DNA from: Dasypus novemcinctus | Taxonomy: Eukaryota > Chordata > Mammalia > Cingulata > Dasypodidae | Direction: 5' to 3' | Length of the DNA: 64,000 bases | Assembly: GCF_030445035.2 (NCBI RefSeq) | Contig: NC_080702.1 | Coordinates: 27,326,084-27,390,083 of the forward strand | Shown here: positions 31,201-32,441 of the stretch, piece by piece | How the letters are laid out: each line of letters opens with the position of its first letter | Numbering within the stretch: position 1 is the first letter of the stretch | The notes under the pieces: model-generated | The model's input: only the letters and a program-made list of their open reading frames with translations | Told to the model about the DNA's origin: nothing | Database searches by the model: none | Made by a program: the position numbers and the translations under genes

Positions 31201-32441
31201 GCAGCCCCGGCGCCCCCACGCCCCGGCCCCGGCCCCGCAGGACGTCCGCCCTGCACAGGGCACTGGACCGCGTGCCCCCCCCCCCATTTCTGCCTTTGCT
31301 CGCTTAGTGATGTCACTGAGTGCCTACTGTATACCCAGCCCACTGCTGGGCACGGGGGACCGGCCGTAAGAGCCGAACCCATGCTGCCTCCTCGGAGCTG
31401 GCGATGAAGGAAAGCAGCGGGGTGGCGGGTGGGGGGCGGGAGAGCAGGCGGGTTGCTCTGGGGACGCGCCGGGGACCTCGTGGCATAAGGTGGCACTTCT
31501 TGGCCGAGGTTGCCTTCGCAGGCAGCCCCCCTCGCCCCCTGGGTGACCCCAGCCCCGGCCCGCTCCGTCCACGCGCCCCCGCGGGAGGAGATGCCATCCT
31601 GCCCAGCGCAGAACGAGCCCCTTTCTGAAAAAGCGGCGGCGGGCGGCGGGGCGGGGGTCGGGGCCGGCCGTGGCCTCCGCCGTGGTGGCCCGTGGCCCCC
31701 GAGGTGACGCCCGCCGCCCTGCAGCGCTGCTGGGCCTGCTGTGCTGCGGCGCCGGCCTGCTCTGGAGGCACTGGCGGCTGCGGAGCGTCAACACCATCAA
31801 CTTTGACAACCCCGTCTACCAGAAGACCACGGAGGACGAGGTGCACATCTGCCGCGGCCAGGACGGCTACAGCTACCCCGCGGTGAGGACGGGCGACGGG
31901 CGGGGGCCAGGGCGGCTGCAGCCACCCCGCGGCGAGGGCGACAGGGGCGGGGGCCAGGGCGGCTGCAGCCACCCCGCGGTGAGGGCGACAGGGGCGGGGG
32001 CCAGGACGGCTGCAGCCACCCCGCGGCGAGGGCGACAGGGGCGGGGGCCAGGGCGGCTGCAGCCACCCCGCGGCGAGGGCGACAGGGGCGGGGGCCAGGG
32101 CGGCTACAGCCACCCCGCGGCAAGGGCGGGCACGGGGCAGGCAGGCGGCAGGGGCCTGGGGGCCAGAGGGCACTGGGAGGCGGGGGACGCGGCCCGGGCA
32201 AAGGCCCTGGGGCAGGTCACAAGCGGCCGGCATGGCTGCACTTGAGGGGACGAGGGGAGGCCCTTGGCCTTCTGCCGAGGGGGCACTGCAGAGGGGGTGC
32301 CCCCCCGGGTGCTCGCCGGCGCCCTCCGGCTGCAGGGGGAGCAGGTGGGCGCGGGGCCGGTGGGCGGGAGGCTGACGTGTCGGGCGCGCCCCGCTTTCTG
32401 GACAGAGACAGATGGTCAGCCTGGAGGACGACATGGTGTGA
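1225..32441 (+). CDS. LDLR: Low-density lipoprotein receptor, complete 18-exon gene
   Basis: Cell-surface endocytic receptor that binds apoB-100/apoE lipoproteins and delivers them to endosomes. Coding exons: 1225-1294, 12004-12126, 13830-13952, 15894-16280, 17662-17784, 19800-19922, 21634-21753, 22129-22254, 24034-24205, 24284-24511, 25782-25900, 26215-26354, 27176-27317, 27410-27562, 28671-28853, 31111-31188, 31725-31882, 32406-32441. All introns are GT-AG. The joined frame is 2604 bp, 867 residues plus stop, against 860 in human. The seven extra residues are one in the signal peptide, two in the LA4-LA5 linker and four in the stalk. Domain order: signal peptide (about 1-23), LA1-7 (28-317), EGF-A and EGF-B (317-399), six-bladed YWTD propeller (399-666), EGF-C (666-717), Ser/Thr/Pro stalk (717-778), membrane helix (about 797-817), cytosolic tail with NPVY at 832-835. 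The start was chosen by the context GCGAGCATG, shared with human. The gene looks fully functional. Confidence 0.97.
1345..1735. repeat. Minisatellite at the start of LDLR intron 1, about 22-25-bp unit
   Basis: Diverged tandem copies built on motifs such as AACTCCGGGAGCCCC, AACTCGGGGAGCCCC and CCTTGGGAACCCC, starting about 50 bp after the exon 1 donor. Roughly 16-18 copies are visible. It explains the long open frames on both strands here, which are not genes. Confidence 0.85.
2189..2315. promoter_or_regulatory. Second promoter-like cluster inside LDLR intron 1
   Basis: Within about 130 bp there are ATTGG (2189-2193, an inverted CCAAT box), CCAAT (2233-2237), GC boxes GGGCGGGG (2252-2259) and GGCGGGGCC (2281-2289), and a CRE-like TGCGTCAC (2308-2315). 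This arrangement is typical of CpG-island promoters. No exon with a recognisable product follows on either strand, so a non-coding or alternative first exon is the natural guess. Confidence 0.45.
2570..5130. other. LDLR intron 1, mostly unassigned sequence
   Basis: Unique-looking intron with a T-run near 3779-3792, C/G-runs near 4292-4301 and 4464-4477, and no exon or clear repeat family that I can name. Confidence 0.5.
5140..5470. repeat. Ancient L1-like fragment
   Basis: The stretch TTGACATACTATAAGGTGGA through the region near 5430 follows the wording of old eutherian L1M fragments (CATTGACATA..., TTTTGACAAA...). It is heavily diverged; the subfamily is not assigned. Confidence 0.5.
5560..5720 (-). 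repeat. MIR SINE (minus)
   Basis: Contains AGGGAAACTGAGGCACAGA and GCCCAAGTCATGTTAGT, the diagnostic inner part of MIR in reverse orientation. Ancient, shared by all mammals. Confidence 0.75.
6064..6280 (-). mobile_element. DAS-I-type SINE pair (minus) in the L1 end
   Basis: Two tRNA-Ala-like heads in reverse orientation (ATTGAAGCCAGGACCTCATA... and CTGAACCCAGGACTTCCGTG...) separated by TTGTTTTGCTTGTCGTTTG. The L1 sequence CATGAAAGATG occurs on both sides (about 6053-6063 and 6281-6291), which is the target-site duplication. Confidence 0.8.
6349..7156 (-). mobile_element. Older DAS SINE (minus) interrupted by a DAS-III SINE
   Basis: The pieces 6349-6550 and 6972-7156 form one reverse DAS element with two tRNA-like heads. 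It is bounded by the direct repeat AATCCCCTA (6340-6348 and 7157-7165). A younger DAS-III (6565-6957) splits it. Confidence 0.75.
6565..6957 (-). mobile_element. DAS-III SINE (minus), precise target duplication
   Basis: Full-length tRNA-derived SINE. It begins with the T-rich reverse of the A-tail and ends in CCAAGTCCGCTTCCC, the reverse of the tRNA-like head. The 14-bp duplication CCTCTGTGTCTCTT lies at 6551-6564 and 6958-6971. Confidence 0.9.
7226..7548. other. LDLR intron 1, nothing recognised
   Basis: About 320 bp between an L1 A-tail and a DAS-III SINE. No exon, RNA gene or repeat family was recognised. Confidence 0.5.
7549..7925 (+). mobile_element. DAS-III SINE (plus)
   Basis: Starts GGGGGAAGCAGACGTGGCTC and contains the B-box-like GCGGTTCAAACCCC. 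It has the usual body (CAAGGAGTGCCCTGCCACGC) and ends in an A-tail. Confidence 0.9.
7965..8092. repeat. Polypyrimidine tract (TTCC/CTCT)n
   Basis: About 125 bases almost purely C and T on the plus strand, imperfect TTCC/CTCT repeats, right after the A-tail of the preceding SINE. Confidence 0.9.
8240..8600. repeat. Ancient interspersed repeat, family unassigned (copy 1)
   Basis: Begins TTATCTATTGCTACATTATC, then ACTTAGCAACTTAAAACAAC, CAGTTTTCTGGGGGTCAGGA and GGCTCGACTGGGGTGGGCGG. This wording is common to an old eutherian repeat that I cannot name with confidence; an LTR-type origin is possible. Related copies lie at 11493-11900 and 23055-23350. Confidence 0.55.
8600..10060. other. LDLR intron 1, GC-rich then AT-rich, unassigned
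   Basis: No exon was recognised. The open frame of about 245 codons on the minus strand at 8984-9724 lacks any recognisable domain and lies in GC-rich sequence, so it is treated as chance. An old L1-like stretch may lie near 9780-9900. Confidence 0.45.
10074..10312. repeat. Degenerate telomere-like (CCTAA)n tract
   Basis: About 240 bases almost without G on the plus strand, in words such as CCTAACCCTAATTCTAACTT, CACCCTAACC, CTAAACCTAAGC, AAACCTAACCC and CTAATCCTAACC. It resembles a decayed interstitial CCCTAA array, though many units are altered to AAC/CAT words. Confidence 0.65.
10313..11490. other. LDLR intron 1, unassigned with an L1-like piece
   Basis: Contains an old L1-type fragment at about 10835-10975 (TATAAAATTTGCCATTTTAA, TGTACAGTTCAATGGCATTG). 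It also holds a 60-70-bp near-duplicate, GTATGTAATATACATTGCAC at about 10424 and GTATGTAATGGACATTGCAC at about 10475. The rest is unrecognised. Confidence 0.5.
11493..11900. repeat. Ancient interspersed repeat, family unassigned (copy 2)
   Basis: GGGGCTGCTGTGACAAGTAC, CAGTTCTGGAGGCTGAAGGT, ATCTGCAAAAACCCTATTTC and CTCAACCCAGG are landmarks of the same old eutherian repeat class as at 23055. Confidence 0.6.
12004..12126 (+). CDS. LDLR: LDLR exon 2: LA module 1
   Basis: 123 bp, residues 24-65. One LDL-receptor class A module with six cysteines and the calcium-binding DGSDES acidic cluster ([10 protein letters not shown] ... [12 protein letters not shown]). The acceptor is CTCCCCTCTCAG and the donor GTGAGT. 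The mature N-terminus differs from human (EEDKC against AVGDRC). Confidence 0.96.
12290..12480 (+). mobile_element. Two DAS-I-type SINE monomers in tandem
   Basis: GGGGAGCGGATGTCGCTTAG ... GGGTTCTATCCCCGGTACC, then a spacer AACTCTCATT, then GGGGAGCAGATGTAGCTCTG ... GGGTTCGATCCACGCTGCC. Both units are tRNA-Ala-like. The spacer is the same as in the array at 49.8 kb. Confidence 0.85.
12690..12925 (-). repeat. MIR SINE (minus)
   Basis: Landmarks: AGCCCTTGTTCTGTGTCAAG, ATAACTTGTCCCAGATCCAA and GTCTGAGCCCAGGTTTGCCT. Confidence 0.75.
13525..13724 (-). mobile_element. DAS-I-type SINE pair (minus)
   Basis: Two reverse tRNA-like heads (GGGGATTGAACCCAGGACCC and GGCGCGAACCTGGGGCCTCG), each followed by the reverse A-box (CTCAACCACCGAGCTCCATC). 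It ends only 105 bp upstream of LDLR exon 3. Confidence 0.85.
13830..13952 (+). CDS. LDLR: LDLR exon 3: LA module 2
   Basis: 123 bp, residues 65-106. Six cysteines with [10 protein letters not shown] as the acidic calcium cluster. The human NGS glycosylation sequon at this point is replaced by DAS. Splice sites are CTCCCTCAG| and |GTGAGC. Confidence 0.96.
14732..14805 (-). mobile_element. DAS-type SINE fragment (minus)
   Basis: T-run, then GATTGAACCCTGGACGGTGC and CTCAGCCACGGCGCTC: one short, decayed tRNA-like head. Confidence 0.65.
15143..15525. repeat. Interspersed repeat, unassigned
   Basis: TTTAATATTACATTAAAAAA ... GAGGTCCCCATATACCCCCC ... TGGTCCACACCATAGCCCAC ... CACCCAGTGGGCCATGGGAG. 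It reads as a dispersed element rather than unique sequence and is perhaps L1-related; I cannot name the family. Confidence 0.45.
15680..15822 (-). repeat. MIR SINE (minus)
   Basis: GTTAACTCACTAGCCCTCAC, GGGGAAACTGAGGCGCAGAG, GGCAGTGACCGGCC. It ends about 70 bp before exon 4. Confidence 0.7.
15894..16280 (+). CDS. LDLR: LDLR exon 4: LA modules 3, 4 and 5
   Basis: 387 bp, residues 106-235 (human 381 bp). Three class A modules, each ending in the SDE acidic cluster ([26 protein letters not shown]). LA5 is the main apoE-binding and acid-release module in the family. The two extra codons lie in the LA4-LA5 linker, which reads [14 protein letters not shown] and contains a new NTS sequon. The LA4 sequon CNNSAC keeps an N-x-S. 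Confidence 0.97.
16371..16775 (-). mobile_element. DAS-III SINE (minus)
   Basis: Reverse full-length element. It starts in TTATTATTTATTTCTCTCTC, has the body CACTCCTTGCACGTGGGGCT and ends in GAGCCACATCTGCTTCT. Confidence 0.9.
17062..17385. repeat. Ancient interspersed repeat, probably L1-related
   Basis: AAAATGATCACGGATAAAGT, GCAGAATTCCCATACAGCAC, CTACTAACTATGGCCCATGG and TCGTGTTATACAGTCC follow a well-known old eutherian repeat. The family name is not certain. Confidence 0.5.
17662..17784 (+). CDS. LDLR: LDLR exon 5: LA module 6
   Basis: 123 bp, residues 235-276. [18 protein letters not shown] ... [10 protein letters not shown] keeps six cysteines and the calcium cluster. Donor GTGAGT. Confidence 0.97.
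17940..18930. other. LDLR intron 5, nothing recognised
   Basis: About 1 kb of moderately GC-rich intron with no exon, RNA gene or clear repeat family seen. Confidence 0.5.
18948..19367 (+). mobile_element. DAS-III SINE (plus) with target duplication
   Basis: GGAAGCGGACTTGGTCCAGT start, full body and A-rich tail. The 12-bp duplication AGAAGGAAATGG lies at 18936-18947 and 19368-19379. Confidence 0.92.
19452..19620 (+). mobile_element. hAT-type DNA transposon fragment
   Basis: Landmarks: CAAACCTCTTCTGTAAAGGG, TTTTTTGTGGCTTTGCAGAC and GCATGGCTGTGTGCTGGTAAAA. These match an old non-autonomous hAT repeat that also occurs at 20259-21005. Confidence 0.55.
19800..19922 (+). CDS. LDLR: LDLR exon 6: LA module 7
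   Basis: 123 bp, residues 276-317. [18 protein letters not shown] ... [12 protein letters not shown], with six cysteines. The acceptor CTCTTGCAG is followed by TGACGCTCTGCGAGG, nearly as in human. Confidence 0.97.
20259..21005 (+). mobile_element. hAT-type DNA transposon split by a DAS-III SINE
   Basis: The left end GCAGGGGTTGGCAAATGTTT, GGAAAGGGCCTGAGGACAG and GGGCCACGCAGTCTCTGCCA runs to about 20480. The right part GGGCTCTACACAAATGGGCA and GGGCTGGATCTGGCC resumes at about 20955. A DAS-III SINE separates them. Confidence 0.65.
20490..20907 (-). mobile_element. DAS-III SINE (minus) inside the hAT element
   Basis: Reverse full-length element with the usual CTCCTTGCGCGTGGGGCTCC body. It ends in CCCCAAATCCACTTCCC. 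Confidence 0.88.
20998..21080 (+). repeat. MIR-like fragment
   Basis: CCTTGGTTTCCCCGCTGTAA, AACGGGAAAC: the MIR core in forward orientation. It directly follows the hAT end. Confidence 0.5.
21088..21470 (+). mobile_element. DAS-III SINE (plus) with target duplication
   Basis: GGGGGAAGTGGACTTGGCCC start, slightly shortened body and A-tail. The duplication is GAAACGACATAC (21076-21087) and GAAATGACATAC (21471-21482), with one mismatch. Confidence 0.9.
21634..21753 (+). CDS. LDLR: LDLR exon 7: EGF-A, the PCSK9-binding module
   Basis: 120 bp, residues 317-357: [20 protein letters not shown] onward. Six cysteines and the calcium/beta-hydroxylation pattern C-x-D-x4-Y-x-C-x-C are present. Residues known to matter for PCSK9 binding in human (Asn295, Asp299, His306, Asp310, Leu318 in mature numbering) are all kept. 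The adjacent Asn300-Asn301 pair is Gly-Lys here and Val307 is Ile. Confidence 0.97.
22129..22254 (+). CDS. LDLR: LDLR exon 8: EGF-B
   Basis: 126 bp, residues 357-399. Begins [20 protein letters not shown], a classical calcium-binding EGF module. Splice sites are CCTCGCAG| and |GTGAGT. Confidence 0.97.
22612..22946 (-). mobile_element. DAS SINE with two heads (minus)
   Basis: Reverse tRNA-like heads at about 22705-22760 (GAGCTGAACCCGGGACCTCC) and 22870-22940 (GGAACCAAACCGGGGGCCTC), with a tail of DAS type (TTGTTGCGTCAGCTCGCC). Confidence 0.8.
23055..23350. repeat. Ancient interspersed repeat, family unassigned (copy 3)
   Basis: GAGCTGCCGTCACGTAGTAC, CACAAACTGGGCATCTCGAA, GCCATGCTCCCTCCCAAACC: same class as 11493-11900. 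Confidence 0.55.
23524..23932 (-). mobile_element. DAS-III SINE (minus)
   Basis: Reverse full-length element ending in GGGCCACGTCCGCTGCCCC, about 100 bp before LDLR exon 9. Confidence 0.88.
24034..24205 (+). CDS. LDLR: LDLR exon 9: propeller, first part
   Basis: 172 bp, residues 399-456. Starts the YWTD six-bladed propeller ([27 protein letters not shown]). The intron that follows is only 78 bp. Confidence 0.97.
24284..24511 (+). CDS. LDLR: LDLR exon 10: propeller, blades 2-3
   Basis: 228 bp, residues 456-532. Contains [20 protein letters not shown] and ends in [10 protein letters not shown]. The human sequon NGS near Arg-Glu-Asn-Gly-Ser reads SREQGAKP here, so that N-glycan site is absent. 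Confidence 0.97.
25213..25608 (-). mobile_element. DAS-III SINE (minus)
   Basis: Reverse element with slightly shortened body. It ends in GAGCCAGATCCGCTTCCCTC. Confidence 0.88.
25782..25900 (+). CDS. LDLR: LDLR exon 11: propeller blade
   Basis: 119 bp, residues 532-572. [20 protein letters not shown] and QWPNGITL are near-identical to human. Donor GTATGA. Confidence 0.97.
26215..26354 (+). CDS. LDLR: LDLR exon 12: propeller blade
   Basis: 140 bp, residues 572-618. [40 protein letters not shown]. Histidines in the propeller contact LA4/LA5 at endosomal pH in the human receptor, and the RLAHPFS histidine is retained. Confidence 0.97.
26951..27041 (-). mobile_element. DAS-I-type SINE monomer (minus)
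   Basis: TTTTGAGGTACCAGGGCCGG, GGATTGAACCTGGGACCTCG, then the reverse A-box. A single tRNA-like unit. Confidence 0.8.
27176..27317 (+). CDS. LDLR: LDLR exon 13: last propeller blade
   Basis: 142 bp, residues 619-666. [20 protein letters not shown] ... [10 protein letters not shown]. The human NLT sequon reads DLT here. The acceptor is TAG (CCGTCTAG|GATAAA). Confidence 0.97.
27410..27562 (+). CDS. LDLR: LDLR exon 14: EGF-C
   Basis: 153 bp, residues 666-717. [20 protein letters not shown] ... [16 protein letters not shown]. The six-cysteine module packs against the propeller. Donor GTGAGG. Confidence 0.97.
28069..28496 (-). mobile_element. DAS-III SINE (minus)
   Basis: Starts AAAGATTTATTTTTTATTTA and ends GAGCCATGTCCACTTCCC. 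Full length with the CTCCTTGCGCGTGGGGCTCC body. Confidence 0.88.
28671..28853 (+). CDS. LDLR: LDLR exon 15: O-glycosylated stalk
   Basis: 183 bp (human 171), residues 717-778, rich in Ser, Thr and Pro ([22 protein letters not shown]). It carries clustered O-glycans in the family and is the least conserved exon. The acceptor CTCTTTCAG|AGGCTGA matches the human exon start. An upstream AG at 28639-28640 would add 30 bp and is less likely. Confidence 0.92.
28930..29035 (+). repeat. MIR-like fragment
   Basis: CCTTTCCCCACCTATAAAAC, GGGGCTGACC: the MIR core in forward orientation. Confidence 0.55.
29170..29253 (-). mobile_element. DAS-I-type SINE monomer (minus)
   Basis: TTTTTAGGAGGCCCCGGGGA, TTGAACCCTGGACCTTGTAC, then the reverse A-box. 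Confidence 0.75.
29403..29819 (-). mobile_element. DAS-III SINE (minus)
   Basis: Reverse full-length element. It ends in TTGAGCCCCGTCCACGTCCC. Confidence 0.88.
30276..30698 (-). mobile_element. DAS-III SINE (minus)
   Basis: A T-run then AAGATTTATAGTTTATTTAT; ends in GAGCCAAGTCCGCTTCCC. Full length. Confidence 0.88.
31111..31188 (+). CDS. LDLR: LDLR exon 16: membrane-proximal part and start of helix
   Basis: 78 bp, residues 778-804. [16 protein letters not shown], then TLAIVLPL, the first third of the membrane helix. Donor GTGAGT. Confidence 0.95.
31725..31882 (+). CDS. LDLR: LDLR exon 17: membrane helix and cytosolic tail
   Basis: 158 bp, residues 804-856. [14 protein letters not shown] completes the helix. 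NFDNPVYQ (NPVY at 832-835) is the clathrin/ARH/Dab2 internalisation signal, and the GYSY motif of the basolateral signal is kept. The tail has one lysine (837) where human has three. The donor at 31883 (CCGCG|GTGAGG) is copied in the minisatellite that follows. Confidence 0.97.
31856..32140. repeat. LDLR: 47-bp minisatellite grown from the end of exon 17 and its splice donor
   Basis: Unit starts at 31856 (49 bp, containing the true exon end), 31905, 31952, 31999, 32046 and 32093 (47 bp each). Every unit carries the GGCCAGGRCGGCTRCAGCYA and CCCCGCGG words. The intronic units are therefore duplicates of the last 27 bases of exon 17 plus the donor. Unit 3 keeps GCGGTGAGG (GT at 31979-31980); the others read GCGGCGAGG or GCGGCAAGG. 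Confidence 0.95.
31883..32245 (+). other. LDLR: Open reading frame from exon 17 through the intronic minisatellite
   Basis: The LDLR frame stays open past the exon 17 donor until a TGA at 32243-32245. Intron retention, or use of the duplicate donor at 31979, would therefore give an extended tail rather than an immediate stop. This is a sequence property only; nothing shows it is used. Confidence 0.6.
32406..32441 (+). CDS. LDLR: LDLR exon 18: C-terminus and stop
   Basis: 36 bp: [11 protein letters not shown] then TGA at 32439-32441 (human [11 protein letters not shown]). The acceptor is TTTCTGGACAG. Confidence 0.97.
   Translation, partial: RQMVSLEDDMV

What the first reader, a model, noticed from the sequence alone, without database searches (positions are those of the whole stretch)
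31856..32140. LDLR exon 17 has seeded a minisatellite that copies its own splice donor, with one spare donor exactly in frame
The last 27 bases of exon 17 plus the donor are the first unit of a six-unit array (49 then 47 bp). Five intronic units repeat the exon end. Most copies have the donor GT mutated (GCGGCGAGG), but unit 3 keeps GCGGTGAGG at 31977-31985. Its exon end (31978) lies 96 bases, 32 codons, beyond the normal one. The frame is open and rejoins exon 18 in phase. The predicted isoform has a Gly/Arg-rich 32-residue insert between GYSYPA and [11 protein letters not shown], inside the basolateral/endocytic tail. Length changes in units of 47 bp would alter this.
Basis: partly seen in the sequence, partly recalled or inferred. 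Interest (0 to 1): 0.78.

Follow-up and report, generated by a model that had tools for sequence, protein, structure and literature searches.

The report
Splice-donor minisatellite in LDLR gene
In this mammal's LDL-receptor gene, the end of one exon and its splice signal have been copied five more times into the next intron, leaving one working-looking spare signal that could add 32 amino acids to the receptor's tail; the same kind of copying is seen at exon ends of two other genes in the same genome.

Summary
Window 31856-32128 is a six-unit array (49, then 4 x 47 bp). Its first unit is the last 27 bases of LDLR exon 17 plus the donor. Unit 3 has a donor 9-mer identical to the authentic one (31976-31984, not 31977-31985), 96 nt downstream; the 32-codon insert is open and rejoins exon 18 in phase. 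'Exactly in frame' is weak evidence: 2 of 5 copies are in phase and 84-90% of shuffles are open. 'Keeps' is unproven; a C-to-T change at a CpG explains unit 3 equally well. Use of the spare donor could not be tested, and no retrocopy was found.

The surroundings add more. SPC24, 7 kb away, has a 16-unit array whose first unit is an exon end plus a U12-type donor (ATATCCTTT). On another contig, TBC1D22A has a 48-bp array with intact, in-frame donors. Donor-seeded minisatellites therefore recur in this genome. The kind is known (IFI6; repeats at exon-intron boundaries), so the LDLR array is a new member by anatomy. I found no earlier report of a U12 version in the searches I made.

The parts
31725..31882 (+). 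LDLR exon 17 (transmembrane end and cytoplasmic tail with NPVY; ends ...GQDGYSYPA), phase 0 at its 3' end
   Evidence: sequence; translation; PDB match to human LDLR (E about 4e-30); tblastn
31856..31904 (+). array unit 1 (49 bp): last 27 nt of exon 17 plus authentic donor GCG|GTGAGG (9-mer 31880-31888)
31905..31951 (+). array unit 2, donor position GCG|GCGAGG, offset 49 (frameshift if used)
31952..31998 (+). array unit 3, spare donor GCG|GTGAGG (31976-31984), offset 96 nt = 32 codons, in frame
31999..32045 (+). array unit 4, donor position GCG|GCGAGG, offset 143
32046..32092 (+). array unit 5, donor position GCG|GCGAGG, offset 190
32093..32139 (+). array unit 6, donor position GCG|GCAAGG (GC-type), offset 237 = 79 codons, in frame and open; tail diverges from units 2-5 (TRF ends the array at 32128)
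31883..31978 (+). predicted 32-residue exon extension [32 protein letters not shown]
32406..32441 (+). LDLR exon 18 coding part [11 protein letters not shown] and stop, preceded by acceptor ...TTTCTGGACAG
32342..32350 (+). another intronic GT 9-mer, CAGGTGGGC, with a higher recalled-matrix score (4.67) than the authentic donor; only 61 nt before exon 18 and behind an in-frame stop
38951..39658 (-). SPC24 array: 16 units of about 44 bp; unit 1 = end of the aa54-101 exon plus U12-type donor CCG|ATATCCTTTCC (exon end 39645); unit 7 also ATATCC, the other 14 ATGTCC
38894..38923 (-). SPC24 U12-type 3' end of the intron: branch-like CCCTTGAC and terminal CGCCCCAC; exon resumes at 38893 (GGAGCTC); joining 39645 to 38893 gives SLRELSREL
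   Evidence: the consensus names are recalled

Best explanation
A tandem duplication of the exon 17/intron 17 junction of LDLR seeded a G-rich 47-bp minisatellite that grew into the intron (anatomy shown; direction inferred from homology of unit 1 to the conserved exon). Normal splicing presumably still uses unit 1. The amplified intronic unit carries GC in place of GT, so most copies are poor donors. Unit 3 has a full donor, most simply by C-to-T at the CpG of GGCGAG or by a short conversion from unit 1, less likely by retention (inferred). Because its 9-mer equals the authentic one, U1 should bind both alike, and I expect unit 3 to act as a minor competing donor that gives a receptor with 32 extra residues between GYSYPA and [11 protein letters not shown] (inferred, not shown). 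The insert leaves the NPVY motif intact but splits the distal basolateral region, so the likely effect is mild mis-sorting of a minor isoform (inferred). The same seeding happened at exon ends of SPC24 (U12-type) and TBC1D22A (U2-type), so this is one case of a recurrent process, not a special LDLR device.
For: Array and donors. Unit 1 is coding LDLR. Identical 9-mers give the same recalled-matrix score (4.06) and the same U1 duplex energy (-8.8), against -2.45 to -2.57 and -4.0 to -4.4 for the GC copies. Of the 17 LDLR donors, 15 score above 1; exon 17 is the only one of these 15 with an equal or better decoy within 150 nt downstream. Of the 10 non-donor GT sites in the gene scoring at least 4.05, unit 3 is 96 nt behind a donor and the other 9 are at least 462 nt behind one. 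Units 2-5 differ by 0-2 of 47 positions, so the expansion looks recent. Four-run G motifs in 31700-32460: 6 on the + strand, 4 of them in the array, and 0 on the - strand. Recurrence: SPC24 and TBC1D22A (PDB E 1.3e-24 over all 43 codons before the donor, where I cut the query). Distal basolateral role of the Gly in GYSYP: G823D (PMC8834378, passage; that this Gly is residue 823 is from recalled numbering).
Against: No transcript evidence of any kind. No retrocopy with the junction among the genome matches. Computed accessibility does not consistently favour either donor (spare higher at window 80, similar at 120, authentic higher at 200). In TBC1D22A and in a contig-C6 family the copies keep intact donors, so 'donor must be broken to be tolerated' is not a rule, and intact copies may simply be ignored. 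The splice matrix and U1 sequence are recalled, not a trained predictor. Random positions in the gene also have downstream copies of 75% or more in 14 of 1000 cases.
Confidence: 0.55

Rival explanations
1. The spare donor is inert: exon 17 definition, context and the first-come unit 1 donor win, and unit 3 is noise in a neutral minisatellite.
For: TBC1D22A carries at least 7 intact downstream copies of its donor, which suggests that downstream copies may often be ignored. LDLR has 9 further non-donor GT sites scoring at least 4.05, one of them higher than the authentic donor in the same intron (32344).
Against: Those 9 sites lie at least 462 nt behind a donor; unit 3 lies 96 nt away with 24 of the 27 exonic bases of unit 1 copied and an identical 9-mer.
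Confidence: 0.45
2. The insert isoform is a selected, tissue-regulated LDLR tail variant.
For: Donor identical, frame open, position in a sorting region (PMC8834378 passage). The unit-3 and unit-6 ends echo the exon end ([18 protein letters not shown] against GQDGYSYPA).
Against: The open frame is expected in 84-90% of shuffles and 2 of 5 copies are in phase. Selection cannot be tested with one genome. SPC24's one intact intronic copy is out of frame (offset 269).
Confidence: 0.07
3. The array is an assembly artefact of a GC-rich stretch.
For: Very high GC (84% insert, 80% intron) and tandem structure.
Against: Units carry distinct substitutions and a diverged last unit. The assembly's contigs seen here are 46-140 Mb long and the locus occurs once at 100%. 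The first unit is a coherent coding exon.
Confidence: 0.04

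Closest known systems
[quoted passage not shown] title seen in the reference lists of PMC4526556 and PMC2572611; paper itself not held)
   Same: A minisatellite at an exon end whose units carry splice donors; two downstream repeat units are used as donors there (one sentence in PMC4526556).
   Different: Use is reported for IFI6 and untested here; different gene, unit and length. Four of five LDLR intronic copies are broken.
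Internal tandem repeats at exon-intron boundaries in human segmental duplications (PMC2812944; abstract and passages seen)
   Same: Minisatellites (on average 30-bp units, 4 copies) some of which lie at exon-intron boundaries and change splicing; 27 intron modifications reported.
   Different: Those are in recently duplicated genes and are described as forming new introns. The LDLR tail is single-copy here as far as one search shows.
[quoted passage not shown]
   Same: Tandem U12-type 5' splice sites, comparable with the SPC24 array.
   Different: USSE is a conserved regulator of minor-spliceosome genes. The SPC24 array has 16 copies, 14 with the third intron base changed from A to G, and it spans a real exon end.
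LDLR G823D (FH-Turku), distal basolateral determinant (PMC8834378 passage)
   Same: Affects the same GYSYP region of the tail.
   Different: A point change in people, not an inserted segment.

Membership tests
Minisatellite with multiple splice donors (IFI6 kind) | tandem units that include an exon 3' end and its donor | tested here: met
Minisatellite with multiple splice donors (IFI6 kind) | at least two units with an intact donor | tested here: met
   units 1 and 3 share GCGGTGAGG
Minisatellite with multiple splice donors (IFI6 kind) | transcripts that use more than one of the donors | not testable with these tools
   no RNA data; retrocopy search showed none
LDLR gene | exons 17-18 encode the NPVY tail ending in the RQMVSLEDD motif, following LA, EGF and beta-propeller exons | tested here: met
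U12-type AT-AC intron (SPC24) | ATATCCTT 5' splice site, CCTTGAC-like branch, AC 3' end, correct frame | tested here: met
   (consensus recalled); gene identity by tblastn with a recalled sequence and PDB E 3.3e-18 for its last exon; Pfam alone did not reach cut-off for the middle exons (Spc24 E 0.37); SPC24 is listed as a minor-intron gene in PMC6865273 (passages)
USSE regulatory element | tandem intact U12 5' splice sites that activate an upstream U2-type 3' splice site | tested here: inconclusive
   only 2 of 16 copies read ATATCC; activity not testable

The most novel reading that the evidence does not exclude
Exon ends with their 5' splice sites are a recurrent seed of minisatellites in this genome, for both spliceosomes. 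The copies serve as length-variable in-frame exon extensions: 32 residues in the LDLR tail, 16-residue steps in the TBC domain of TBC1D22A, and up to 23 intact donors after a transmembrane-like frame on contig C6. Copy number would then tune isoforms between paralogues and individuals. The SPC24 array would be the first described minisatellite built from a U12-type donor.
Probability: 0.15. Interest if true: 0.75.

Novelty: new member of a known kind. Interest (0 to 1): 0.5.

Why it matters
Duplicated, identical competing donors in a well-studied receptor are a natural test of how splicing chooses between equal sites. If used, they make a tail variant in a sorting region with a known human mutation. 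The parallel SPC24 array gives the same test for the minor spliceosome, and TBC1D22A gives one with many intact copies. Together they make one question countable with ordinary RNA-seq: does a spliceosome ignore, or use, a tandem series of its own start signals? They also suggest that exon ends are overlooked birthplaces of minisatellites.

Tried and rejected
Frame as evidence: rejected as weak (2 of 5 copies in phase; 4493 of 5000 shuffles of the insert and 4181 of 5000 shuffled introns open). RNA accessibility: inconclusive. Retrocopy evidence for the isoform: none; the 4 matches outside the locus are 36-56% identical, of 8 matches in all. Similar arrays elsewhere (L002-L007, 66-71% identity): not studied further. 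'Copies amplify only when the donor is broken': considered because LDLR (4 of 5 intronic copies) and SPC24 (14 of 15) fit it, dropped as a rule because TBC1D22A and six C6 copies keep donors.

Genome-wide donor arrays: I looked upstream of 14 array places (L008, L009, L012, L019, L021, L022, L026, L027, L028, L058-L062, and 72 for L061). One is a proven coding exon (L058, TBC1D22A). L028 is a transmembrane-like frame without a Pfam family. L008 and L060 are weak candidates (no Pfam match above cut-off; no PDB match for L060). The other 10 showed no exon I could recognise; open frames from 7 of them (L009, L012, L019, L021, L022, L026, L062; 9 peptides) gave no Pfam family at E 0.1, and L027, L059 and L061 were judged by eye. 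These 14 are not a random sample: they were picked by a donor pattern, from the first rows listed. For the C6 family, reading through the first donor meets a stop within a few codons in the copies I could see (L052, L053, L056, L057, output cut), so that place could be a terminal exon instead of a splice site. The U12 pattern search gave 14 matches against 6 for its reversed control; by eye only the two SPC24 matches look like real U12 donors.

Paper searches for U12 minisatellites (25 of 66 listed), donor minisatellites and LDLR exon 17 cryptic donors (15 of 16 listed) gave no earlier report of these arrays in the titles and abstract openings shown; this library lacks most subscription papers.

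Full report
Observation. The array is real. TRF reports 31856-32128 with period 47, 5.8 copies and score 451; donor-anchored ends are at 31882, 31931, 31978, 32025, 32072 and 32119. The first unit holds the last 27 bases of exon 17 and the authentic donor. Donor 9-mers are GCGGTGAGG (units 1, 3), GCGGCGAGG (2, 4, 5) and GCGGCAAGG (6). Splicing 31978 to 32406 would add 32 open codons and rejoin exon 18 in phase.

Gene context. Exons 17 and 18 match human LDLR chains in the PDB at E about 4e-30. tblastn with a recalled human sequence, and inspection, place LDLR between 1225 (exon 1) and 32441 (stop) on the + strand. SPC24 follows on the minus strand at 42693-38435 (its last exon matches PDB Spc24 chains at E 3.3e-18). 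The window is G000:C45:27326084-27390083 of a 3.61-Gb assembly in 546 contigs, and the array occurs there once at 100%.

How strong is the spare donor? By a recalled position matrix it scores the same as the authentic one (4.06), and a U1 duplex calculation gives -8.8 for both; the GC copies score -2.45 to -2.57 and -4.0 to -4.4. Of the 17 LDLR donors, three have an equal or better GT decoy within 150 nt downstream: exons 11 and 13, whose own donors score 0.09 and -0.47, and exon 17. Ten non-donor GT sites in the gene score at least 4.05; unit 3 is one, and the other nine lie 462 nt or more behind the nearest upstream donor. The one at 32344 scores higher than the authentic donor (4.67), but it lies 61 nt before exon 18 and behind an in-frame stop. 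Local folding does not settle the choice.

Is the duplication more than chance? The 40-nt junction of exon 17 has an 80% copy within 1 kb downstream. The 14 other LDLR donors tested (exons 2-15) reach at most 57%. Random positions average 52%, yet 14 of 1000 reach 75% and the 99th percentile is 85%, because the gene holds other repeats.

What is not special. In-frame position is expected: offsets 49, 96, 143, 190 and 237 give 2 of 5 in phase, and stop-free stretches are common at 84% GC (4493 of 5000 shuffles of the insert, 4181 of 5000 of the intron). Unit 6, a GC-type site, is also in phase and open, with 79 residues. Unit 3 differs from units 2 and 5 only at the donor T. Since the alternative base makes a CpG, a C-to-T change is a simple origin, so 'keeps' is not shown.

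A second array in the same window. SPC24's exon for residues 54-101 ends at 39645 with CCG|ATATCCTTTCC. The intron ends CCCTTGACCGCGCCCCAC, the exon resumes GGAGCTC, and joining 39645 to 38893 gives ...GGSLRELSRELEEL, in frame with the recalled human protein. These are the marks of a U12-type AT-AC intron (consensus recalled), and SPC24 is named as a minor-intron gene in PMC6865273 (passages). The 16-unit array 38951-39658 starts inside this exon end. Unit 7 also reads ATATCC (offset 269, out of frame); the other 14 read ATGTCC. Three tandem arrays with period 30 or more lie in the two genes (the third begins at 1347, 53 nt after the exon 1 donor). If their starts fell at random, two or more of three would lie in the last 30 nt of an exon with P about 8e-4, by simple arithmetic on 20 donors in 35.5 kb. 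This estimate is post hoc and ignores base composition.

Elsewhere in the genome. A pattern of three consensus donors with 30-46-base gaps has 142 matches against 9 for the reversed pattern, at 22 distinct places among the first rows listed (my count; not all 142 are listed). With 20-50-base gaps there are 999 against 146, many of them one family on contig C6. The reversed pattern is only a rough control for base composition. I looked upstream of 14 places, picked by that pattern from the first rows. One is proven...RCTIRLWDTYQ|GTGAGT of TBC1D22A (PDB 2qfz, E 1.3e-24 over all 43 codons up to the donor, where I cut the query; Pfam RabGAP-TBC 3.1e-9). It is the first unit of a 48-bp array of about 14.6 copies. 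The seven intronic copies matched by my anchor in consecutive 48-bp steps all have GTGAGT donors, in frame; the first three steps are open and a stop lies in the fourth; a further anchored copy at offset 673 has GTGGGT and is out of phase. Six fetched C6 copies show a transmembrane-like frame running up to the first donor in 6 of 6, followed by totals of 6 to 23 intact donors counting the first. No Pfam family is accepted and the best PDB match is a weak Mediator hit at E 0.046; reading through the first donor soon meets a stop in the copies I could see, so this is a candidate only. L008 and L060 are weak candidates and 10 places gave no exon.

Mechanism. I infer that local duplication across exon-intron junctions in G-rich DNA seeds these arrays (six four-run G motifs on the sense strand of 31700-32460, four of them in the array, none on the other strand), and that growth into the intron is tolerated because the first donor still defines the exon. 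In LDLR and SPC24 most intronic copies carry a donor-weakening change (4 of 5; 14 of 15); in TBC1D22A and the C6 family they do not, so breakage is not required. For LDLR I expect a minor isoform at most.

Known kinds. A minisatellite giving multiple splice donors is on record for IFI6 (title and one citing sentence; the paper was not held), and repeats at exon-intron boundaries that change splicing are reported in PMC2812944 (abstract and passages). The LDLR array matches that kind in anatomy; use of more than one donor is untested. Tandem U12-type 5' splice sites are known as an enhancer, USSE (PMC3584512 passages). I saw no report of a U12-donor minisatellite in the listings. The tail position matters because G823D, in the same motif by recalled numbering, mis-sorts the human receptor (PMC8834378 passage).

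Noticed in passing
window 38951-39658 (minus strand, SPC24): Sixteen-unit minisatellite whose first unit is an exon end plus a U12-type AT-AC donor; 2 of 16 copies have ATATCCTTT, 14 have ATGTCCTTT.
   Followed up: yes
L058 and L063 (G000:C18:108153950-108155300): TBC1D22A exon end seeds a 48-bp array with at least 7 intact in-frame donor copies; each step would add 16 residues, open for the first three steps.
   Followed up: partly
L052-L057 (G000:C6, 86.9-100.2 Mb): Multicopy locus with a transmembrane-like frame ending at a donor-like site, with 6-23 intact sites in 28-29-bp units; the number differs between the six copies fetched; no Pfam family accepted.
   Followed up: partly
L060 (G000:C24:1940980-1941360): Coding-looking stretch ...WERQCEALAQ|GTGAGT followed by 23-24-bp units ending in CCCTGGCCCAG|GTGAGT; gene not identified.
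   Followed up: partly
L008 (G000:C1:209304630): Stretch resembling, from recall only, an SLC49A3-like exon with a broken frame; its donor region opens a 44-bp array; no Pfam match.
   Followed up: partly
window 1347-1724: GC-rich array in LDLR intron 1 starting 53 nt after the exon 1 donor; does not overlap the exon.
   Followed up: no
window 49839-50421, 51839-52781, 54390-55828, 56169-57461: Tandem arrays of a tRNA-like unit (about 103 bp), a 119-bp unit, a 40-bp unit (36 copies) and 28/89/122-bp units in the region beyond SPC24.
   Followed up: no
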